In this document: positions 1 through 23,486 of the stretch, in pieces | Position numbering within the stretch: the stretch's first letter is position 1 | Layout of the letters: each line of letters opens with the position of its first letter | Assembly: GCA_963978545.1 (NCBI GenBank) | Contig: OZ021727.1 | Location: 17,496,743-17,560,742, forward strand | Origin: Linyphia triangularis | Taxonomy: Eukaryota > Arthropoda > Arachnida > Araneae > Linyphiidae | DNA: 64,000 nt | Direction: 5' to 3' | Made by a program: the position numbers and the translations under genes | The notes under the pieces: model-generated | What the model saw: only the letters and a program-made list of their open reading frames with translations | The model's database searches: none | Told to the model about the DNA's origin: nothing

Positions 1-1748
1 ATAATTTTACTGTTGGTACATAAATGATGAATAATTTATGATTTTATTCTAGGCAAACGTTTTATTGTCTAACAGAGAACTTAAACTTTAGCAGAAAAAC
101 GAAAAAATACAATTTTTAAATCCTATCATGCTTGTTGAAAATTGAGTTTATTAGCTGTTGTAATAAATTTTTATTGTCCAAATTTCTATAGTTTTTCTTC
201 CCAGTGCAATAAAATTAAGTTCATGTGTAATGAGTAGGTTTTTTTGATGAATCTTAAAAATTTAATGAAATTATTATGACCTAAGAGATTGAGTGAACTG
301 AATAAATCAATGATGTAAATTTAAACAGTGACTTGAACTGATACATACTATAACCGTAAAGAAGTATGACAAAGTGATAGATGAAGTGAAAATAGAAGTT
401 GAGTGAAATGTGTTGAAAAAAAGTTGAAGACGACAAGAAATTCGTAAATGAATCATTCACTTATATTAACATTCATTGACTTATATTAACTTCATTTTTC
501 TTGCTTATGACAAGAAAATACACTCTTTCTTATTAAGAACCAACTTGATATCTTATCATAGAATGACAATGATGAAATATCTATACATTAAAAAAAAAAT
601 ACCAAACTTAGACATAGCACATTTCTTGAAATTCATGTATAATGTGAGAAGTTTTACTGGAAATATAGAAAATACAACATTGAAAGATGTGAATGTTTCG
701 AAGTACTTTATCAGAAAAAAAAGGAAAAAAAAAATGCGCTGAGGTCCGCTACAAAAATTTTTAGGAGAAAGTTTAAACAAAATTTAAAATCAAACATGCT
801 TTTAAGTGGGAACACATATATTAAAACTATAGCACATTAAACAATTTATATTATGTCATCTCGGTATCAAACTGAATAACATGAAAAACAACGATAAACT
901 GAATAAACATGATAATTATCAATATATGTGGAAAAGTTTCCTTTTTTCACATATAAAAAAAATAACACATTGACATACGTTAAGATCACGAAACATGCGT
1001 AATCATATGCCGATAAGAGCAACCAATGTTGCGGGGAGATATTCACTTGATGGTCAATATCCCATGAATAAATTGATTGATTGAATTTCTAATGCTAATT
1101 CCAATAGTATTCCATGTAACTTCAACTTGATATGTTACACTATAGATATATTTATTTTTCAAAGATATTGACTTTCAAAAAATCATCCTTCAATATAAGA
1201 ATGATCATAGTAAGAATAAAAGAAAAGATACTAAGCATTGATTTAAAGTGTATTTATTTCGACTTAGCAACAAATCATATGCTTGAAACGAAAATTGTTT
1301 CGAACCAAAGTATAACTATCCAATTTCATTGATTCCTACAAGAAAATTTTTCTCATCTAGTAATTGAATTTTTTTTTTCTCATACACATTATAAGTGTTG
1401 TCCAATCAGGTGTAGAATAGTTGAAGATATCCGACCTCTTTCTAAATATTAATAAGTCACTGTTGAAAAATTTATAAAAATTTCAATTTAAACTTAAAGT
1501 TTTTTTTTTTTACATATATATATCAAAGAATGTTTTCAAGTCAATATATATATTTAAATACGAAAATTTATTCACTTCAATAAATGTATGTTTAAGTTAT
1601 AAAACTTGTCGTATGTATTGAAAAATTGTAACTTTTCGTCTTATTCGTATAAATCGATAACTTATACCACTAGTTCTTCATCAATTAATCTCCTAAGTAA
1701 ATCTTTCAAAGGTAAAAACATACTTATAGCTTTGTCTTTGTAACATGT
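1..1748 (+). repeat. Left arm of a giant near-perfect palindrome
   Basis: This stretch is the reverse complement of 1757-3504, with position 1 pairing with 3504 and position 1748 with 1757. Differences seen by eye are few: an A-rich tract near 719-734 differs from its partner near 2772-2790, a T-run near 1500-1511 is one base shorter than the partner A-run near 1994-2006, and there is one substitution near 1470 against about 2034. The arm reaches the first base of the window, so its outer end is not defined. No convincing gene lies in it: the short open frames are mirror images of those in the other arm, low-complexity, and match no family I recognise. Confidence 0.95.
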
Positions 1749-1756
1749 TAAATTTT
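1749..1756. other. 8-bp spacer at the palindrome centre
   Basis: The bases TAAATTTT separate the innermost arm sequences GTAACATGT and ACATGTTAC. Such a short spacer would let single-stranded DNA snap back into one long hairpin. Confidence 0.9.
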
Positions 1757-3504
1757 ACATGTTACAAAGACAAAGCTATAAGTATGTTTTTACCTTTGAA
1801 AGATTTACTTAGGAGATTAATTGATGAAGAACTAGTGGTATAAGTTATCGATTTATACGAATAAGACGAAAAGTTACAATTTTTCAATACATACGACAAG
1901 TTTTATAACTTAAACATACATTTATTGAAGTGAATAAATTTTCGTATTTAAATATATATATTGACTTGAAAACATTCTTTGATATATATATGTAAAAAAA
2001 AAAAAACTTTAAGTTTAAATTGAAATTTTTATAAGTTTTTCAACAGTGACTTATTAATATTTAGAAAGAGGTCGGATATCTTCAACTATTCTACACCTGA
2101 TTGGACAACACTTATAATGTGTATGAGAAAAAAAAAATTCAATTACTAGATGAGAAAAATTTTCTTGTAGGAATCAATGAAATTGGATAGTTATACTTTG
2201 GTTCGAAACAATTTTCGTTTCAAGCATATGATTTGTTGCTAAGTCGAAATAAATACACTTTAAATCAATGCTTAGTATCTTTTCTTTTATTCTTACTATG
2301 ATCATTCTTATATTGAAGGATGATTTTTTGAAAGTCAATATCTTTGAAAAATAAATATATCTATAGTGTAACATATCAAGTTGAAGTTACATGGAATACT
2401 ATTGGAATTAGCATTAGAAATTCAATCAATCAATTTATTCATGGGATATTGACCATCAAGTGAATATCTCCCCGCAACATTGGTTGCTCTTATCGGCATA
2501 TGATTACGCATGTTTCGTGATCTTAACGTATGTCAATGTGTTATTTTTTTTATATGTGAAAAAAGGAAACTTTTCCACATATATTGATAATTATCATGTT
2601 TATTCAGTTTGTCGTTGTTTTTCATGTTATTCAGTTTGATACCGAGATGACATAATATAAATTGTTTAATGTGCTATAGTTTTAATATATGTGTTCCCAC
2701 TTAAAAGCATGTTTGATTTTAAATTTTGTTTAAACTTTCTCCTAAAAATTTTTGTAGCGGACCTCAGCGCATTTTTTTCTTCTTTTTTTTCTGATAAAGT
2801 ACTTCGAAACATTCACATCTTTCAATGTTGTATTTTCTATATTTCCAGTAAAACTTCTCACATTATACATGAATTTCAAGAAATGTGCTATGTCTAAGTT
2901 TGGTATTTTTTTTTTAATGTATAGATATTTCATCATTGTCATTCTATGATAAGATATCAAGTTGGTTCTTAATAAGAAAGAGTGTATTTTCTTGTCATAA
3001 GCAAGAAAAATGAAGTTAATATAAGTCAATGAATGTTAATATAAGTGAATGATTCATTTACGAATTTCTTGTCGTCTTCAACTTTTTTTCAACACATTTC
3101 ACTCAACTTCTATTTTCACTTCATCTATCACTTTGTCATACTTCTTTACGGTTATAGTATGTATCAGTTCAAGTCACTGTTTAAATTTACATCATTGATT
3201 TATTCAGTTCACTCAATCTCTTAGGTCATAATAATTTCATTAAATTTTTAAGATTCATCAAAAAAACCTACTCATTACACATGAACTTAATTTTATTGCA
3301 CTGGGAAGAAAAACTATAGAAATTTGGACAATAAAAATTTATTACAACAGCTAATAAACTCAATTTTCAACAAGCATGATAGGATTTAAAAATTGTATTT
3401 TTTCGTTTTTCTGCTAAAGTTTAAGTTCTCTGTTAGACAATAAAACGTTTGCCTAGAATAAAATCATAAATTATTCATCATTTATGTACCAACAGTAAAA
3501 TTAT
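1757..3504 (-). repeat. Right arm of the giant palindrome
   Basis: Reverse complement of 1-1748. The match stops at the window's first base, not at a visible sequence boundary: sequence from 3505 onward has no partner only because the window begins there. The near-identity of the arms means either a very recent or gene-converted inverted duplication, or an assembly fold-back from a read in which both strands were read in series. Differences concentrated in homopolymers would fit sequencing error in the second case. Confidence 0.95.
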
Positions 3505-5430
3505 CATTTACATTTTTGTAGATTTTTCTTTTTAACATGACAATGTTTTACATGTAAAGTTTATTTAATAGTAATTTCCGACTTGAAAATGTAGATAGCA
3601 TTTATTTTCGATGAGTTTGATTTCAACTGACAAATATATTTCAACATTCGAAGCATATGCGAGTTATGTGAATAAACCATATGCAACTTAGCTAAATTTC
3701 AGTATTAAGTTGTGAAGTTTTATCTTTGCCCTAGAAAATATATTTATTTTTACTGATTTTTGTTAAGTGCTACGAGGATCTTTTACAAAGTATGTCTTCT
3801 TGCAACATGAGAAAAGATGCGAAATGATAAGGACTTTTCTGGTATGCTTTCAATTCCTTGAGAAATAAATTTAGCTTAACTAGAAGACTTGTTCCGATTC
3901 TGAAGTGTGCTATTTCCTATCGTAATTTATAATTTTACATGATACTTGGTTTAAAAGTTGAAAAAGTTTGCACAAATTTCCTATTCTACTTCACTTAAAA
4001 GTTATCGGTCACAAGCAATAAAAATTCCACTTTGTTTGACTAATGTTATGCATGTGTTAATTATCATGTGTAATATCAGTTTTATTTGTGTCTTTCGAAA
4101 GCGAGCATTCATAAATTTGAAAGGATATTTCAAACTATTTTCAAAATATAAGTATCTTTTACATGTTTTTTCCGGAATGAACTTTGCTCAGTTATATTAA
4201 TATTGAATATTCATCTTACAAAATAAGCGTCTTGTAAAACACATTCCGTTTCAGTTTTCTGAAATTTATGTATAAGTTATTTAGAAATTATGGGTGGAAG
4301 TTAAAAATCTCTATATTAATGATATATTGTCAGCACCTCTCAAATAAAAAAAAAATTCATGTATAATTTAGTTTGTCCAGATGGTGTTCAATTTTACGTA
4401 GTAACAAACTCTACATTTTCCAAATTTATGCTAGTTTTTCACAAGAAAAAAAAAATATTCTTTAAGTTTGCCTAGCAAACTTTTTTCAGTATTTAAATTT
4501 TCTAAGTATATTCCATCACATGAGTAGTTAACTATTTCCTCTAAGGAAAATATCTTATTATTTTAGTTTGTTTGATTGATGTTAGATTTTTATGTTTCTG
4601 ATTGGTGATTTGCATATACAGTTTTAAAAACTTTACACAATTCGTAACATATATGTTAGAAATAATAGTATATCGCATCTGAGATTGAAAAAAATTTATA
4701 ACTATTATCATGTAAAGAAGGTTAAATTTTAAAAACATGTCGTTGAATATGAGTGTTACCATGAAAAAAGTTAACAAAATTACTTGCGATTTCCTTTCAG
4801 AGTATAAAAAGTTATATAGTTTACATATAATTCGCAAGTTCCTTTCAATTTATCTTAAGATGTTTTAAAAGTCTTGCAGGTGATTTTCAAAACTTAAATG
4901 CATATCTACAATGTATTTAATATCTACAATTTATTTAATATTTTCCCCCAATTCACCTTTCTTAGATAAGTAAAATAAACCTTAGTTAGATAAGTAAAAT
5001 AAACCTTAGTCAGCATGTATTGCACGAAATAATACGACACCTTAACGTATATTATTACAAAGTAAATTGTCTAAGTCTTTCTTGAAGTAACATAAATTTC
5101 CAACTTGCATTGATTTTCCGATTGAAAAGTAGAGGTGAATTTTTTTCCTTGGAGTGTCTATAACTAGTATTTATTTTAAATCTCTTACTATTTTTCTTCT
5201 ATGTAACAACTTTGTTAAGTTTTACCCGTATTGTAGCATATAATCTCACTGAGTTTGAACAATATTCAATGTTTTAGACAATAGAAAAGTTTTCAAGTAG
5301 AAATGATCTTAAATTCTCCAAGTGAATCATACTTTTTGGAAGAAAGTCCATGCGAATTCTACCTTCACTTACTAATGTGTCTTTGAAATCCACTTAATTC
5401 ATTCCAAGTTTTCACAAACATTTCATTATG
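3505..5430. other. AT-rich gene-free stretch
   Basis: No exon, RNA gene or transposon end could be supported on either strand. Open frames are short, AT-driven and rich in F, I, L, K and Y. The only structure noted is a pair of short direct duplications at 4903-5009. Confidence 0.6.
4903..5009. repeat. Two adjacent short tandem duplications
   Basis: An 18-bp unit (ATCTACAATGTATTTAAT type) occurs twice at about 4903-4938, and a 24-bp unit beginning TTAGATAAGTAAAATAAACC occurs twice at 4962-5009. Both look like replication-slippage duplications. Confidence 0.8.
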
Positions 5431-5660
5431 AAAAAGGAAAAGTAGGAAAACGATAATCTCGAAGACCTGCTGACACACCGCAGCATCACCCGCTGCTTGC
5501 GCGTCGATGCTGTTGTTCTTGCTGTACAAGTCTCCCGACCTGTTTGAACAAGTTTTAGCGTGACTCATCCTCCGGTCTAAAAATGCCGGCAAGTGGCGTA
5601 TCACCTACCGCTAACCTGATTGGCTAATTACCGTCACATGCTTATCATCCCGTTTAAAGA
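5430..5660. other. GC-richer island with AP-1 and CCAAT-like motifs
   Basis: This segment is clearly richer in G and C than the surrounding AT-rich DNA. It contains a TGACTCA AP-1 motif at 5561-5567 and an ATTGG (inverted CCAAT) just downstream. A 79-codon open frame runs on the minus strand (5604 to 5365), but it matches no family I know. It could be a promoter or first exon of a minus-strand gene, or a transposon remnant; the sequence does not decide. Confidence 0.35.
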
Positions 5661-7070
5661 CGTGAATTTTATATGTAAAGTAAATTTTTACGCTAACGCT
5701 TAAATTCTTTGCTATAGAAAGTTCAAGTATGTTATTTTTTTTTCTCTTATATGTTACATTTTAAACACATGATATGAAATTTTTACGTTATGCTTATCTT
5801 AGAAATTTTTGAGTATGTTACTTTTTCTTTTATTTAACATTAACCTAAGAGTTTAATTGTATATGAGAAGTAAATTGTCACGTTAAAGTTTAAAGACATG
5901 ATATTTATATGTGAAGTAAATTTTCGTGTAAAGGTTAAAATTCTTTATCTTTGAAATTTTTATTCTGTTAAATTTCCCATTATTTAACATTAACCTAAGA
6001 AAATAATTGTGTATGAAATTTTCGCGTATTGTTTAAATTGTTGTCGAAGAAAGTTTAAGTATGTTATTTTTTTTTCTTCTCTAATTTAGCATTATTCTTA
6101 CACATTTTAAAGATAAAAATGTTATGTGTGAAATAAATTTTCGCGTATTGTTTCAATTCCTTACCTTATAAATTTTTAATATTTCTTTTTCTCTAATTTA
6201 GCGTTATTCTTACACATTTGAAAGACATAATTTTTATATGTGAGGTAAATTTTCGCGTATTATTTGAATTCTTTGCCTTATAAATTTTTAGAGTTTCTTT
6301 TTTTATCTTATTTATCGTTGATATAAGAGTATGATAGTACATGTAAAGTTAATTTTAACATTCAATTTTAAATTCTTTGCCTTGTAAATTTTTAGTGTTT
6401 CATTTTTTCTAAAAGTTAGAGTTGTCATTATACATTTTAAAGACATGAACGGCAATGTTTGAATTCTTTGTCGTAGAAATTATAGGTATGTTATACTTTC
6501 ATCCTACATTTCAAATTTAAAGTCGTGATTTTTATATGTGAAGAACATTTTTTACGTTAATGTCAAAGTTATTTGTCGTACAAAGTTTAAGTGTGTTACT
6601 TTTTTTCTTTTATTTAGCGATATTTCTACATATTTTAATATCGGGATTTTTATGTGTAAAGTAAAATTTTACGTTAATGTTAAAGTTATTTGTCGTAGAA
6701 AGTTTAAGTACGTTACTTTTCTCTTGCATGTTATATTTTAAAGTCGTGATTTTTATACATGAAGGGAATTTTCGCGTAAAGGTTAAATATTTATCTTAGA
6801 AATTTTAAGTAAGTTACTTTTTTTCTCTTATTTAGCGATATTTTTACACATTTTAAAGTGATTTTTATGTGTAAAGTAAGTTTTTTTCGTTAATTTTAAA
6901 GTTATTCGTCGTAAAGAGTTTAAGTATGTTACTTTTTTCTCTTATTTAGTGATATTCGTACACATTTTAAAGACATGATTTTTATTCGTAAAGTAAATTT
7001 TCACGTTCACTTTTGAATTCTTAGTTGTAAGATGTTCAAGTATGTTACTTTTTCTCTCTTATTTAGGCAT
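5650..7070. repeat. Decayed tandem array, about 110-bp unit, about 13 copies
   Basis: A motif of the form AAAGACATGATTTTTATATG, then GTAAAGTAAATTTTCGCG, then a TTTAAGTATGTTACTTTTT block and CTTATTTAGCGATATT, recurs at about 5656, 5765, 5891, 6000, 6109, 6222, 6330, 6440, 6520, 6637, 6740, 6856 and 6969. Spacing is mostly 103-126 bp. Copies are strongly diverged, with substitutions and small indels, so this is an old satellite or minisatellite. A further degenerate copy may sit near 7805-7885. Confidence 0.8.
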
Positions 7071-8150
7071 TAGAGTATCCAAAATCAGTTATCACATCTC
7101 TATTCAGCATTAGCAGCTAGTTCTGTGTTGCCATTCATCAACTCATGTAAGTATCATCGTACAATAAAAACTATCTTGATTAATATAACTAACATAAACA
7201 TATTAATTTCTAACAAGTTTATTGGTAATATAAATTTTAACATAGACTGTAAGTAGCTAAGATATATAATATCGCTCGCATAGTACAGTATAGCTTTAAA
7301 TTACAACCGATTGTAACAAATAGAATCAATTTCAAAGTATTTGAAGGTTGATATATCGAAAAGTTATGTATTTCCATCTCTTTGAAAACATTGTTCTGAC
7401 TAAAAAGAAATGTTTTTCCTAAACCATTCTGGAAGAAGAAGAAAAAAATTATAGATTCCTCAATAAAATATGGATAATACATTTAAAATTTACAAAATTG
7501 AGAATAATACTTATATAAATAAAAAAAAATCGTCATTTTTCTATTCAAAGTGATAAATATTTCTTTTTGGAAATGTATATTACTAATATTGTATTGCAAA
7601 GTCACGTGTGAACACACTACAACTACTAATTCCCTTCAACAGGGTCAGACAAACTCAACCTAAAAATAATTGAAAAATCATTGCTTTAACTTCCATAATG
7701 GGTTTCAGTTGCTGAATATTAAAAATTAATTCTAGTCTAAGTTCTTTTTATTGTGTATTCAATCCCTCAAAAACTATGACAATAAAAGAAAGAAAAAACT
7801 ACTTAATGACATGTTAAGCTCTGTAAAAGAAATTTTTACGTTAAGATTGCAAAGTTTAAATTTTTTATCTCATAAATTTTAATTTATATTTACATTTCAT
7901 ACTGTTATTGAGAAAATAATGAGACTTTATGTGTCTAACATTGATTAAACCTGATTCCTTAAAAGTGTCTTTGATTATATCTCTCAACATTAGTTTAAAT
8001 GTGTTAAGCACTTATAAAAAAAAAAAAAAAAAAAAATCAACTCAATCCGAAACTTTACGCATTTGGGTTAATATATTATCTTTGCATGTATTTGAAGTTT
8101 TTAATGGTGAAGCATGAAAAGTTATAAACTGTGTAATTTATGTTCCTTCC
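7070..8150. other. AT-rich gene-free stretch
   Basis: No gene or clear element is visible. A possible orphan copy of the upstream 110-bp unit lies near 7805-7885, and a long A-run lies near 8017-8036. Open frames here are low-complexity. Confidence 0.5.
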
Positions 8151-8151
8151 T

Positions 8152-8167
8152 ACCACTAGATGGCGCC
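8152..8167 (+). promoter_or_regulatory. CTCF-type binding motif
   Basis: The bases ACCACTAGATGGCGCC match the conserved core of the CTCF insulator site, CCAC-N-AG-R-K-GGC, without mismatch in the core. The site sits at the edge between a gene-poor AT-rich region and the E-box/CRE block, which is where a boundary site would be expected. A motif match alone does not prove binding. Confidence 0.5.
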
Positions 8168-8221
8168 GCAATTACATTTAACTTAGTAGAAAACTATCTT
8201 ACTAAGCTGTATAGCCAGTGA

Positions 8222-8246
8222 AATCACGTGACACATTTCAACCAAT
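8222..8246. promoter_or_regulatory. E-box (TCACGTGA) followed by CCAAT
   Basis: A palindromic CACGTG at 8225-8230, within TCACGTGA, is followed by CCAAT at 8242-8246. E-boxes of this type bind bHLH-zip factors of the USF/MITF/Myc class. A second TCACGTGA-type site lies at 8894-8901, so the two bracket the CRE array. Confidence 0.4.
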
Positions 8247-8321
8247 GAGAAGAGAGTATTTGGTGATGTGTCTAAAACTGACCAATTGCAAGCAAGTATT
8301 TTGTCGACTCCTAACATCTAG

Positions 8322-8835
8322 CAAGTTATGACGTCATTCCCATTCTGTGACGTCACACAATAAAAGCCTACAACTCTAAGTTATTCGTTTAGAAGCAGCC
8401 CTAAAACAACTCAACTCCACCTGAAAGGTAATTCGAAACTAAAAAGTGTTGCCACCGCTCAAAACTTTTAATGTTAAGCAAGTTATGACGTCATACTCAC
8501 TGTGACGTCACTAGTACAAATATCTATAACTCTAACTTATTCACTTAGAAGCAGCCCTAGAACAACTCAACCCCATTTAACTGGAAGCAAAAACTAAAAT
8601 GTGTTGCCACCGCTCAAAAACTTTGATATAAAACAAATTATGACGTCATACCCACTGTGACGTCACTAGTAAAAAAGCCTATCACTCTAACTTATTCACT
8701 AAGAAGCAGTCCTAGAACAACTCAACTCCGTCTGCTAGATAAACCGAAACTAAAAAAGTGTTGCCACCACTCAAAACTTTGATATAAAACACATCATGAC
8801 GTCATTCCCACTGTGACGTCATACACAAACAGCTT
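8322..8835. repeat. Four-unit tandem repeat (about 156 bp), each with two CREs
   Basis: Units start at about 8322, 8479, 8634 and 8790, spaced 157, 155 and 156 bp. Each opens with a pair of exact TGACGTCA palindromes: 8329 and 8348, 8486 and 8503, 8641 and 8658, 8797 and 8814. The pair spacing is 19 bp in the first unit and 17 bp in the others. The rest of the unit (a GAAGCAGYCCTAGAACAACT-like block, then GTGTTGCCACCRCTCAAA) is also repeated, with about 10-20% divergence. The CRE octamers are kept exactly while the rest drifts, which suggests selection on CREB/ATF-type sites. A transposon with internal repeats is the alternative. Confidence 0.85.
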
Positions 8836-8874
8836 ATAACGAAACCGAAACTAAAACAGCAGCAGGAGGGGAAC

Positions 8875-8977
8875 AACTCAACTCCACTTCCGATCACGTG
8901 ACTTCCAGTGACGTCATATCCGGTCACGCCCCATACCATACCTGCTCCGCTGCTCCGCCATGGCCCCGGACTGTCCT
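8875..8977 (+). promoter_or_regulatory. GC-rich segment with CRE, E-box and Kozak-like ATG
   Basis: After the CRE array the sequence becomes locally GC-rich. It holds a TCACGTGA E-box (8894-8901), a ninth exact TGACGTCA (8909-8916), and a Kozak-like CCGCCATGG with its ATG at 8960-8962. The frame from that ATG runs only 18 codons to a stop at 9014-9016. This looks like a core promoter plus 5' exon, but no TATA box, transcript start or splice donor can be assigned with confidence. It may serve the downstream RasGEF gene or a gene now decayed. Confidence 0.35.
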
Positions 8978-9039
8978 TTTCTAACTACTGTCGCATATCA
9001 CATACATGTCACATAATGATTTATTTGTGATTTTCATTG

Positions 9040-15200: not shown

Positions 15201-18200
15201 TAAGTAGAATACAATTATTACTGGATTGATTCCCGTGCAGATAAAATTAAAGAACAACTAAGCTTCTAACTATGTGTTTAGCTTTCATGTATCAAATATA
15301 ACTCAATCTTACTTTTAAATCAACATATAAGAAAATGCTATCACATCATTGCAGATTTTTTATGTATACAAAATACTGAAAAATGTATTTAATCAGCAGA
15401 TGGAATTTTAGAGAGTGCCAATGCACATACACATTGAGTAACGCGCTATAAAAGACTAAAATAAGCATCTAACTGTACTTAAGTATTATCCCACAAACAG
15501 TGGCTACATTTTTTGTTGGCGACAAAAAGTTTGAACCACCTGGCCTCCTCGGAGGTACGGTTTGGCTAGGTTGGTTGGTTGGTTGTTTTCAGATTATCTG
15601 GCGCCGTCAGCAACACGAGGGCTATAATGCGCCGAAACATTCGTCATTAGACAAGCCAACATACATTTATAGACTTCCATGCCAAACACGGGACTCGGAA
15701 CCCGCAACCTCGCGGTCTAGAAGCTAGCACGCTAACCACTATACCGTCGGTTTGGCTAGGACCAGATTCGGGGTCTTCTTGAGGAATGTCTCAGTTTGCT
15801 GGAGGATTGAGAATCCGTCCGGAGAGAAACTTTTCAACCGACTAAGAAAATCCATTTGGCGAACTTTTTGTTTCGCCAACAATCGACGGGATAATATGCA
15901 AGTACCGATCGAAATTTGATAGTCCAAAAATAAATGCTTTTAAATCAAAAAGTTAAAATTTGAAAAATTATTTTATTTAGATATGTAACGAGAATGTATC
16001 TAAGTTTATATTTAGAAATTGGTTTAACTGACTTCTGTTCAGCAGCATTGTAAAAAAAAAGTAATGCATCAGAACGTTCAGGTTTATGTACCAGGAACGG
16101 CCAGTTTAATTTTAGAATATTTATTATAAAGTTTTTTGTAACTATGAATTAAAATTTTCATCCCATATATTTAGTAAACGTTATATTTAGTATACATTAA
16201 GAAAAGCGAAAACAACTAAAACATTTAATTACATTTATTGTATTATTAGAAACCATACTAAAGCAGATATAAAACATTTGGGTCAAATATGCTCGACTGA
16301 AAATTGAAACTCTTTGCGAAAAGAATTGTTTAAATTCCAGTTATAATATCGGAAGAGAAATCCATCGGGTGAAACGTAGCACTAATTTAAACAATATTTG
16401 CCTATTTTGTGATTTTTTTCCCCTTCAATTTGGTACCAATAATTAATTGTCTTACTTTTCAGGTCGTCTATTGGGTTTATCGAAAAATATTTTGCGAATT
16501 TACTCCTGAAACCCGAGCTAAAGTGATCGTTCATTTTATCCGTATTGCCAAAGAGCTCGAGAAATTGAACAATTTCAGTTCTCTATTTGCTGTACTCTCC
16601 GCTCTCAACTCGGCAACAATTTCCAGAATGAAGGAAACTTGGAAGGTAGGATACAAATGCATTCGATATCGACATTTGTGAGAGGCTTAAAATACATAAA
16701 AAGTTTGGTTTTTAAATTACAAGAACGTTTTTAATTTTATTATTTATGTATCAGAGTATTCTATGTAAACAGCCGCAACTCAACAAATAAAGATTAACTC
16801 ATTATCACAGATGTCATCGAAGTCATCGAAACTAACTATGAATGAATGAATGAATGAATGAAGATTAGTAGTGCAAGATTATAATAGTATTATTTTAACA
16901 CTGCATGATCACCCAAAAACATATTCTATATAACTTTAAGCATTTTAGTTTTATATTACAGCTTATGTTTTAAGTGTTAAGTGCATATTTAAAGGTGTAT
17001 TTGAATTAATAATGAATTAATTTTGGTAGTGACAATACTTTAACACTAGACTGAAAAAGCTGTTGTATATTAAAAACCATGTTTAAACTTTAAAACAGAG
17101 TACATATTTGTCCCCAAAGCAAATCTTGTTAAAATATCGTAGCTGAAAATATTACTTTTAGAGAAAACTTAAACATCACCTAAAGCTCTTGTATTTGGTA
17201 AATTTAATAACATTTTACACTACGATCTGTAAGAAGGTAATTTCATCCCGTTACTAAAAGAACTCAAAATAATCTCTTAGTTGATTACACGTGGATCTGG
17301 ATTAGGTTCTGAACATCTCGAGAAATAGCTCTCAATTCGAAATTCTTAAGTTTATTGCTTGAGCAAAACTATTAATTCTACATACAGTGTGGCAGTTTAA
17401 ATTAGTGTCGTAATTTTAGGTGTTTGATGCAAAATGGTGAGTTTGAGAGCATACAACTGGAATTTGCAATTACTTGAAATGCTGTGTCTTTTGTATTATG
17501 ACAGTCTTTCTGCAAACATATATATGCTGTGAAATTTATTCTAAACAAGTGAATCAAGAAACGTTTGAACAAAATGATCTTTTATACATCACGTGCTAGA
17601 CTAACAGTGGTAATTTATTATACTAAAAGAACTAATGCAGAGAAACATATTGTTAGTTCTTTGAAAGTAACTTATAGTAAGAACATGTGAATTACCTACT
17701 TATAAATATTCTTTACAGAATAGAATTTTTTTTCAGTATTGGATTCAATTATTGAAATAATGTTTTAAATATTTATTATATTATATTAAAAACACATTTT
17801 ATGCTTTAATTTATTTTTAATTATCCTTTCAATGAGTTTATCTTCATAACTGACACTAACCAATTATTCCAAATAAAATTTTACGAAAGCGATGCGTAAG
17901 ACCCAAATGACTCTAAATAAATGCAACAAATATATTAGGATATTTTTCCAAACGGCATTAAAAGCTTGTTTTGTAAAATATGACAAGGAACTAAAAATAT
18001 ATTTTTTTTAATTTTCTAAGTTACAGATTTTCGTTTCATGATGTTTTTCCAAGTGATTATATAGATTTCAATATTTAAAAAAAAAAAAAAAAAATTGCCA
18101 AGATATGTACTTCCGAACAGAGCTCATTTATAACAATATATTTTTTTTATAATCAAGTATGCTCTTTCTTTTCCAGTATGTACCTAACCAAATGAAAAGG

Positions 18201-21711: not shown

Positions 21712-22870
21712 TTACAGACTCGATATTCCAAACTGGGAATGCAGCAAGTGACCCTATGGTGCTACACCAGAATGGCAAGCGTGAATTAAAACAAAACTCG
21801 CAGACCTTTTGAAATGTCACGAGCGATGATAAACCGGTGGTCAGAATTGAACCACCGTTTGATTTGAGGAAGAATGGATGTAATCGATATTACAGACTGG
21901 AAATTCAGCCAGCTACCCTGCGTGCTGCGCCAAAATGATGTGCATTTGCCGTCTCATCAACAAATGAGGATATGCAGTCCTCGTTTAAATGCCAGGTGAG
22001 GGTGACATGCCCCTGGTCTACAAGTCAACCGACTTCCGTGGAAGTACGGAGCAAATTGATATTCCAGACTGGAAAACTGCCAGCTACCCTGTGTGCTGCA
22101 CCAAGAGGAATTGCATTTGCCGTCTCATAAACAAATGAGGATACGCAGTCCTCGTTTAAATGCCAGGTGAGGTGACATACCCCTGGTCTACAAGTCAACC
22201 GACTTCCGTGGAAGTACGGAGCAAATTGATATTCCAGACTGGAAAACTGCCAGCTACCCTGTGTGCTGCACCAAGAGGAATTGCATTTGCCGTCTCATAA
22301 ACAAATGAGGATACGCAGTCCTCGTTTAAATGCCAGGTGAGGTGACATCCCTGGTCTACAAGTCAACCGACTTCCGTGGAAGTACGGAGCAAATTGATAT
22401 TCCAGACTGGAAAACTGCCAGCTACCCTGTGTGCTGCACCAAGAGGAATTGCATTTGCCGTCTCATAAACAAATGAGGATACGCAGTCCTCGTTTAAATG
22501 CCAGGTGAGGTGACATACCCCTGGTCTACAAGTCAACCGACTTCCGTGGAAGTACGGAGCAAATTGATATTCCAGACTGGAAAACTGCCAGCTACCCTGT
22601 GTGCTACACCAAGAGGAATTGCATTTGCCGTCTCATAAACAAATGAGGATACGCAGTCCTCGTTTAAATGCCAGGTGAGGTGACATACCCCTGGTCTACA
22701 AGTCAACCGACTTCCGTGGAAGTACGGAGCAAATTGATATTCCAGAATGGAAATTCTGCCAGCTACCCTGTGTGCTGCGCCAAGATGACGTGCATTTGCC
22801 GTCTCATCGACAAATGAGGATATGCAGTCCTCGATGCCAGGTGAGGTGACATACCCCTGGTCAACAAGTG
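21712..22870 (+). repeat. 170-bp tandem repeat, about seven units, downstream of the RalGPS-like stop
   Basis: GCAAATTGATATTCCAGA marks unit starts at 22051, 22221, 22389, 22559 and 22729 (spacings 170, 168, 170, 170). Two diverged units precede (marked near 21716 and 21885), and the last unit is diverged too; the central units are nearly identical. GC content is well above that of the flanks. One frame per unit stays open for about 45 codons, and each unit has a donor-like CAGGTGAGG, but 170 is not a multiple of three and one unit lacks 2 bp, so no continuous protein is encoded. It may be transcribed as part of the gene's 3' UTR. Confidence 0.9.
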
Positions 22871-23486
22871 AACCATCTTCTGCGAAAGTGCCGAGGGAAA
22901 TGGACGAGAAAGTGGCGTTCCAGTTTGAAAATGGAGCCTTCTATATTCGCTGCATTGTACATTTTTACGTAACAACACATTTGCCGAATATTAGTAAATC
23001 CAAAGTAAAATCTATCATTGTGATTGAATTGTTGTTTGAATTTAAACTAATTAATGTATTTTTGTAGTATTCGTTTTATCTACCAATAAAAATTTTGAGT
23101 TCCCCATGTCTTCATGCTTCAGTCTTGTTTGTCTTTATGTGTCTTCAGAGTGGTCTTTTAAAAGTATTTTATGTTAAACAGCATATATGACTAGCCCACC
23201 AGCAAAATCAACTGTGTGTACGTAAAAGTTAAAATAAATAAAGTCTACCATCATCTTGAAGCATCAAACATCCATAAAATGTAATAGAAGAGAAATTTGT
23301 TTTATTTTTTTAAATTAAAATAAAGTTGATGAAGATGTTTTTGCAATTGGGCTATAATTTTATAAACTTCTTTTTTGATTTGTTTACAAATAGCTTCTGG
23401 AAATTTAAAAATTTCGCTTGATGTTACACAACTTTTACACAAAGTTTTTTTTTTTTTTAATTTTTTTTTTATTGCATGCTTTACTT
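22870..23486 (+). other. Possible 3' flank with AATAAA, otherwise featureless
   Basis: The diverged end of the 170-bp array passes into AT-rich DNA. AATAAA at 23085-23090 could end transcripts of the RalGPS-like gene, giving a 3' UTR of about 1.7 kb that includes the repeat. This is a guess from motif and position only. Confidence 0.35.
23085..23090 (+). terminator. Candidate polyadenylation signal AATAAA
   Basis: A canonical hexamer about 1.67 kb after the stop codon. Other AT-rich candidates exist, so the assignment is weak. Confidence 0.3.

What the first reader, a model, noticed from the sequence alone, without database searches (positions are those of the whole stretch)
8322..8835. Phased array of paired CREs: eight exact TGACGTCA sites in four 156-bp units
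Each unit places two full CRE palindromes 17-19 bp apart, and the pairs recur every 155-157 bp, close to one nucleosome plus a short linker. All eight octamers are exact although the rest of the unit has drifted. This looks like a regulatory cassette amplified for CREB/ATF-type factors, and I know of no described element with this layout.
Basis: partly seen in the sequence, partly recalled or inferred. Interest (0 to 1): 0.75.

Follow-up and report, generated by a model that had tools for sequence, protein, structure and literature searches.

The report
CRE-studded ends of giant palindromic transposons
The repeated CRE sites are not a local gene switch but the end of a 14.5-kb virus-like (Polinton/Maverick) transposon in a spider genome, present in hundreds of copies, many of which have lost their genes and become near-perfect giant palindromes that still keep these sites.

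Summary
The array is real: eight exact TGACGTCA octamers in four ~156-bp units, plus a ninth at 8909. It is not a single-locus enhancer. It lies just inside the right end (window 8989) of a 14,505-bp transposon that starts 5.5 kb left of the window and is a near-perfect palindrome (99.4%). The genome holds 7,445 exact CRE pairs (reversed control 8) and 1,408 matches to the terminal pattern (control 0). Ends are 5'-AGTAGT...ACTACT-3' with 6-bp target duplications, as in Polintons/Mavericks. A coding relative with the same ends has a chromo-integrase, a packaging-type ATPase and PolB-like ORFs. In a position-ordered sample of nine elements, eight had palindrome-arm sequence (seven with the centre at the midpoint) and one was coding. 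Octamers diverge less than the rest of the unit (pi 0.037 against 0.145), as do four other blocks. So the array is probably a cis-acting signal of the element, perhaps like the ATF site in adenovirus terminal repeats; a packaging signal is a rival. Element genes point towards the ends, so it is no obvious promoter for them. Both ends of an element carry the same terminal 'word' (39 of 41 pairs), as if copied from one end.

The parts
1..8989 (.). The part of a 14,505-bp palindromic Polinton-derived element that lies in the window; the element starts 5.5 kb left of the window (G000:C6:17491227) and ends at 8989
   Evidence: self-complement alignment 99.4% over 14,540 columns; 6-bp duplication GTCGCA on both sides
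1742..1763 (.). Centre of the palindrome (axis near 1752.5), short loop between the arms
   Evidence: three other copies (L049, L053, L054) keep a longer spacer between the arms at the same place
2781..2991 (-). Decayed relative of the first gene inside the left end of the coding Polinton (o228, L012:2148-2834), right arm; by the axis its mirror in the left arm is about 514-724
   Evidence: tblastn, own arm E=2e-10; the mirrored ORF pair 470-742 and 2742-3035 is
6070..7066 (.). Tandem repeats of about 112-218 bp in the AT-rich arm
8156..8989 (+). Terminal inverted repeat shared with the coding Polinton (match 92.6-93.2% up to about 8924, outer part varies)
   Evidence: (L012, L013 matches)
8322..8478 (+). 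Array unit 1 (octamers 8329 and 8348)
8479..8633 (+). Array unit 2 (octamers 8486 and 8503)
8634..8789 (+). Array unit 3 (octamers 8641 and 8658)
8790..8884 (+). Array unit 4, partial (octamers 8797 and 8814)
8885..8940 (+). Outer block with E-box (TCACGTGA) and ETS-like motifs and the ninth octamer (8909-8916); motif names recalled
8943..8977 (+). Element-specific terminal 'words': TGCTCCGC twice (8943-8958), CCCC (8964-8967), CTGTCCT (8971-8977) between fixed anchors
8978..8989 (+). Terminus TTTCTAACTACT, i.e. 5'-(AGT)2...(ACT)2-3' ends
   Evidence: same end motif in vertebrate Mavericks (PMC8097293, passages)
8990..8995 (.). Target site duplication GTCGCA, also present directly left of the other end

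Best explanation
Shown: the array is part of the terminal inverted repeat of a Polinton/Maverick-like family in a spider genome. The window copy is a non-autonomous member whose inside is a 14.5-kb near-perfect palindrome without long ORFs. Inferred: it is mobilised in trans by coding Polintons that share its ends, and the octamers persist because the element needs them in cis. My preferred mechanism (about 0.45) is that host ATF/CREB-type factors, with E-box and ETS factors in the outer block, bind the ends and make them an open, active replication origin, as the ATF site in the adenovirus terminal repeat helps virus growth. Also inferred: the palindromes arose by fold-back copying during protein-primed strand-displacement replication, and both ends are renewed from one end in each cycle. 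The confidence below is for the identity, not for the mechanism.
For: Dispersal: 7,445 exact pairs against 8 for the reversed pattern; 1,408 terminal-pattern matches against 0. Ends: (AGT)2/(ACT)2; exact 6-bp duplications in 13 of 16 elements with both ends read. Palindrome: own copy 99.4% over 14,540 columns. Coding partner C14:114728193-114743665 (coordinates worked out) has the same ends, an rve+Chromo integrase and an Adeno_IVa2/Pox_A32-type ATPase, and three ORFs homologous to the two PF03175 loci compared, of 20 fetched. Position-ordered sample of 9 elements on C1: 7 with a palindrome centre at the midpoint, 1 with arm sequence only, 1 coding. Arms agree 97.6-99.9% within four elements; the own arm agrees 94-97% with five other copies. 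Same terminal word at both ends in 39 of 41 pairs, 2-3 expected by shuffling. Octamer constraint. Adenovirus parallel: PMC2794291, passages. Gene blocks of the coding element point towards the ends, so the array lies 3' of both.
Against: No protein-binding, transcription or replication data were available. Four other blocks in the unit (AACAACTCA, AGAAGCAG, TGTTGCCA, AACTAAAA) are as conserved as the octamers, and the test on arrays in register is only borderline (26 of 518 shifts). Lower divergence could partly reflect homogenisation between copies. Apart from the ends, one decayed gene and weak polymerase-like matches (E 0.007-0.07), the arms show no similarity to the coding element, so the origin of most of the arm is unknown. 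Capsid and protease genes were not identified. Three of the 16 elements lack an exact duplication: one matches 5 of 6 bases, two have mirror-image flanks. One of the four within-element comparisons (C6b, 97.6%) is hardly above the best between-element value (97.1%).
Confidence: 0.85

Rival explanations
1. The octamer pairs are a packaging signal of the Polinton particle, read by its own ATPase, as paired A-repeats with fixed spacing are in adenovirus.
For: Adenovirus A-repeats act in pairs with fixed 21-bp spacing and bind IVa2 (PMC5033970, passages). Here the pair spacing is 17 bp in all 50 listed places of 7,445, the coding partner has an Adeno_IVa2-like ATPase, and elements have about the length of coding copies: 28 of 41 are 13.5-15.7 kb, median 14,668; the two coding copies are 15,022 and 15,473 bp (worked out).
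Against: TGACGTCA is a host ATF/CREB site and sits beside E-box and ETS-like motifs, which points to host factors. Similar length may just be inherited from one founding palindrome; 13 of 41 elements fall outside that range. Unit 1 in the window has a 19-bp spacing.
Confidence: 0.2
2. The array is a promoter that drives element transcription.
For: CRE, E-box and ETS-like motifs are typical of strong promoters (recalled); an ATG in CCATGG context lies near most ends read, reading outward.
Against: Both gene blocks of the coding element run towards the ends from a central 3.3-kb gap, so no long ORF starts next to the array.
Confidence: 0.2
3. A host enhancer cassette for CREB/ATF with nucleosome-phased units.
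For: Exact octamers, period 155-157 bp.
Against: Hundreds of copies with transposon ends and target duplications; the number of exact pairs per end varies from one to five.
Confidence: 0.03
4. The palindromes are assembly or sequencing artefacts (hairpin reads).
For: Two copies (C1:51.39 Mb, C2:54.12 Mb) have mirror-image flanks, which such artefacts or true inverted duplications give.
Against: The other 14 elements with both ends read have different flanks, 13 of them with exact 6-bp duplications; arms differ by 0.1-2.4%; seven loci of the C1 sample share the same centre.
Confidence: 0.04

Closest known systems
Polinton/Maverick (vertebrate Mavericks, PMC8097293)
   Same: 6-bp target duplications, 5'-(AGT)2//(ACT)2-3' ends, size about 15 kb, integrase, ATPase and PolB-like ORFs in the coding partner
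   Different: Eight of nine sampled copies carry gene-less palindrome-arm sequence; the ends carry a tandem array of paired CREs; terminal words vary between elements
Adenovirus inverted terminal repeat and packaging domain (PMC2794291, PMC5033970)
   Same: ATF site TGACGT in the terminal repeat; paired repeats with fixed spacing near an end; protein-primed replication in the wider lineage
   Different: A single ATF site instead of 8-14 octamers per end in the best copies; no integrated palindromic form known to me; analogy only
Foldback-like elements such as Galileo (PMC3573991)
   Same: Very long terminal repeats with internal tandem repeats; copies reduced to the repeats
   Different: Galileo is a P-superfamily element with 7-bp duplications; here duplications are 6 bp and the partner is a Polinton

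Membership tests
Polinton/Maverick | 6-bp target site duplication | tested here: met
   17 pairs examined: 13 exact, 1 with 5 of 6 bases, 2 with mirror-image flanks and no direct duplication, 1 whose ends lay outside the fetched stretch
Polinton/Maverick | (AGT)2//(ACT)2 end motif | tested here: met
   motif from PMC8097293, passages
Polinton/Maverick | Integrase, packaging ATPase, PolB | tested here: met
   Met for the coding partner L012/L050/L013; the window copy has no ORF of 150 aa or more, so it is a non-autonomous derivative
Polinton/Maverick | Capsid proteins and adenoviral-type protease | tested here: inconclusive
   Further ORFs without Pfam match; five of six sent to PHROGs without match; one sent to PDB without match
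Polinton/Maverick | Terminal repeats of 46-1,447 bp (vertebrate range) | tested here: not met
   Met in the coding partner (837 bp aligned) but not in the palindromes, whose arms are about 7.25 kb
Foldback/Galileo (P superfamily) | 7-bp target duplications | tested here: not met
   6-bp duplications
Foldback/Galileo (P superfamily) | P-type transposase | not tested
   no search for it was made
CREB/ATF-bound enhancer | Occupancy by CREB/ATF and effect on a host gene | not testable with these tools
   only the octamers themselves were seen

The most novel reading that the evidence does not exclude
The palindromes are a self-renewing satellite of a Polinton virus: each cycle rebuilds the whole element from one arm by fold-back, protein-primed replication, so both ends carry the same combinatorial terminal word, while the CRE-pair array is the cis signal (host-factor-activated origin or packaging site) that lets them compete with the coding virus at the same particle-fitting length of about 14.7 kb.
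Probability: 0.3. Interest if true: 0.85.

Novelty: new variant of a known kind. Interest (0 to 1): 0.6.

Why it matters
Whether animal Polintons make particles is open; PMC8097293 argues for it from constrained genome size (passages). A large family of gene-less copies that keep the ends, the array and roughly the length of coding copies is a natural test of what a Polinton needs in cis and whether length matters without genes. Long near-perfect palindromes, probably in hundreds of places judging from the sample, are also useful for studying how animal genomes tolerate palindromes.

Tried and rejected
Rejected: single-locus enhancer; tRNA or known RNA gene (no match); arm as carrier of intact long genes (no ORF of 150 aa or more in the window copy, or in the fetched middle stretches of five other copies, L049 and L051-L054; their outer 4-kb pieces were not scanned). 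An early octamer test against the window as reference gave 22 of 1,507 against 772 of 10,787 differences (24 arrays, both ends of some elements); I hold it biased because the reference itself has intact octamers, and rely.

Led nowhere: the CRE pair in IMG/VR gave 3 contigs, no more than chance by my own rough estimate; integrase relatives in IMG/VR: 2 and 85 stretches matched a pattern, none confirmed; one capsid-sized ORF against PDB gave nothing, and six ORFs against PHROGs gave one match, the ATPase to a terminase family. Papers on palindromic Polintons or CRE arrays in their ends were sought and none was seen in the listings; most subscription papers are not in that library. A mismatch count of the octamer pair over the genome was asked once and not answered; a count of an arm 20-mer (and repeats) did not complete, so palindromes were not counted over the whole genome.

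Rows dropped: from the 50 listed CRE-pair places two single places with another spacer, two clusters near 11.70 and 11.75 Mb that form no adjacent pair, and one cluster cut by the list end were not used as elements. From the 100 listed ends 18 formed no adjacent pair within 40 kb. From 82 matched units 17 were left out as too short.

Full report
Observation. The window holds nine exact TGACGTCA octamers, eight of them as four pairs in a tandem array 8322-8821 with period about 155. Units 1-3 are 80-84% identical to each other, and the partial unit 4 is 65-71% identical to them.

Where it lies. The window is G000:C6:17496743-17560742 of a 1.35-Gb genome. A 447-aa mitochondrial COX1 translation from that assembly is 100% identical to an entry named Linyphia triangularis, so the host is a Linyphia-like sheet-web spider; the species is not proven. 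Searching with the array returned 48 matches from 40 scored of 2,660 first-look candidates. Of eleven neighbouring minus/plus matches within 200 kb, six span 14.2-15.5 kb; the others span 1.5, 9.1, 29, 42 and 151 kb. The exact pair occurs 7,445 times (8 for the reversed pattern) and the terminal pattern, which has ten free positions, 1,408 times (697 + 711, control 0).

The element. The window copy runs from G000:C6:17491227 to window 8989, 14,505 bp, and aligns to its own reverse complement at 99.4% over 14,540 columns. It has 6-bp duplications GTCGCA. Of eight elements five have exact 6-bp duplications, one matches in 5 of 6 bases, and two have mirror-image flanks and no direct duplication. 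In the position-ordered C1 sample eight of nine pairs had both ends in the fetched stretches and all eight had exact duplications; the ninth pair's ends lie just outside. The ends read 5'-AGTAGT...ACTACT-3', the commonest end motif of vertebrate Mavericks, which also have 6-bp duplications (PMC8097293, passages).

Coding partner. C14:114728193-114743665 (15,473 bp, worked out) has terminal repeats of about 840 bp, 96% identical to each other. Its ORFs include an rve+Chromo integrase, an Adeno_IVa2/Pox_A32-type ATPase (short matches above the cut-offs) and a zinc-finger ORF with an Endonuclease_7 match below its cut-off. Three ORFs match L036 and L039, two of 20 loci fetched with PF03175 DNA_pol_B_2, at E down to 3e-82. 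The integrase has 2,973 relatives at E up to 0.001 among 4,623 candidates in a protein collection, the best hit 72% identical. The left gene block reads towards the left end and the right block towards the right end, with a central gap of 3.3 kb. A second coding copy (C1:29.76 Mb) was seen only in two short inner pieces and its ends.

Palindromes. Of six other paired copies three are palindromic through nearly the whole length (C6b, C3, C4), one (C2) is palindromic with a rearranged middle, one (C1:51.39 Mb) is inverted only in its outer 3.5 kb including flank with the middle in one orientation, and one is coding (middle of C1:51.39). In the C1 sample seven of nine have a palindrome centre at the midpoint, one (18,460 bp) has arm sequence but no centre there, and one is coding, 97-99% identical to the partner in the two pieces read. 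Arms are 99.9, 99.5, 99.2 and 97.6% identical within four elements, while the own arm is 94-97% identical to five other copies. [quoted passage not shown] The rest of the arm is AT-rich and of unknown origin; weak polymerase-like matches (E 0.007-0.07) are inconclusive.

Length. Forty-one adjacent end pairs on C1, from the first 100 of 1,408 ends, have median 14,668 bp, 28 of them within 13.5-15.7 kb, range 4.4-29.1 kb. Similar length may be inherited from one founder, so it supports but does not prove a packaging limit; PMC8097293 argues for such a limit in coding Mavericks (passages).

Octamers. In 65 near-full units from 23 terminal repeats, octamer columns have pi 0.037 and the rest 0.145; 1 of 154 circular shifts is as low; octamers are intact in 56 of 65 and 54 of 64. 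Four other blocks (AACAACTCA, AGAAGCAG, TGTTGCCA, AACTAAAA) are about equally conserved. With 14 arrays in register the contrast is weaker: 0.020 against 0.049, 26 of 518 shifts as low.

Mechanism. I infer a cis-acting role at the element's ends. The ATF motif TGACGT is present in adenovirus terminal repeats and matters for growth of HAdV-C5 (PMC2794291, passages). Paired, fixed-spacing A-repeats near one adenovirus end direct packaging (PMC5033970, passages). Both fit; I prefer the first because the octamer is a host-factor site and E-box and ETS-like motifs stand beside it (motif names recalled). Neither was tested.

Terminal words. Between fixed anchors the last 40 bp carry variable words. 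Both ends of an element share the inner words in 39 of 41 pairs, the other two differ by one base, and shuffling gives 2-3 on average and at most 10. The two inner words show no association (1,834 of 5,000 shuffles as high; 23 of 36 combinations seen). In an earlier comparison of 14 elements eleven had identical last 40 bases, two differed by two bases, and one, C3, was misread because the script picked a wrong site; one search shows the same inner words at both its ends. The between-element mean there (12 differences over 91 comparisons, none identical) includes the misread row.

Noticed in passing
window 8943-8977 and the ends of other copies: Combinatorial terminal words: a 7-8-bp word often written twice, then two short words from small sets, separated by fixed anchors. 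Both ends of an element match (39 of 41), the two inner words assort independently.
   Followed up: partly
window 8960-8989: An ATG in CCATGG context opens a frame of ten codons running outward to the last base of the element; read by eye in most of the ends seen; meaning unknown.
   Followed up: no
window 26331-63997: Satellite array of 368-bp units, about 102 copies, 90% matches.
   Followed up: no
window 21882-22874: Tandem array of 170-bp units, 5.9 copies, 95% matches.
   Followed up: no
window 16391-16678: Likely exon of a RasGEF-domain gene, Pfam E=1.9e-20, downstream of the element.
   Followed up: no
L015/L016 (C1:51.39 Mb) and L019/L020 (C2:54.12 Mb): Mirror-image flanks on both sides of the element: inverted duplication beyond the element, or assembly error.
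   Followed up: no
L010 1-636: A second array copy, 86% identical, just outside the C6b element.
   Followed up: no
L023 (C4:54.92 Mb): A 1.75-kb miniature made of two terminal repeats with about 93 bp between them, with a 6-bp duplication ATCACG.
   Followed up: no
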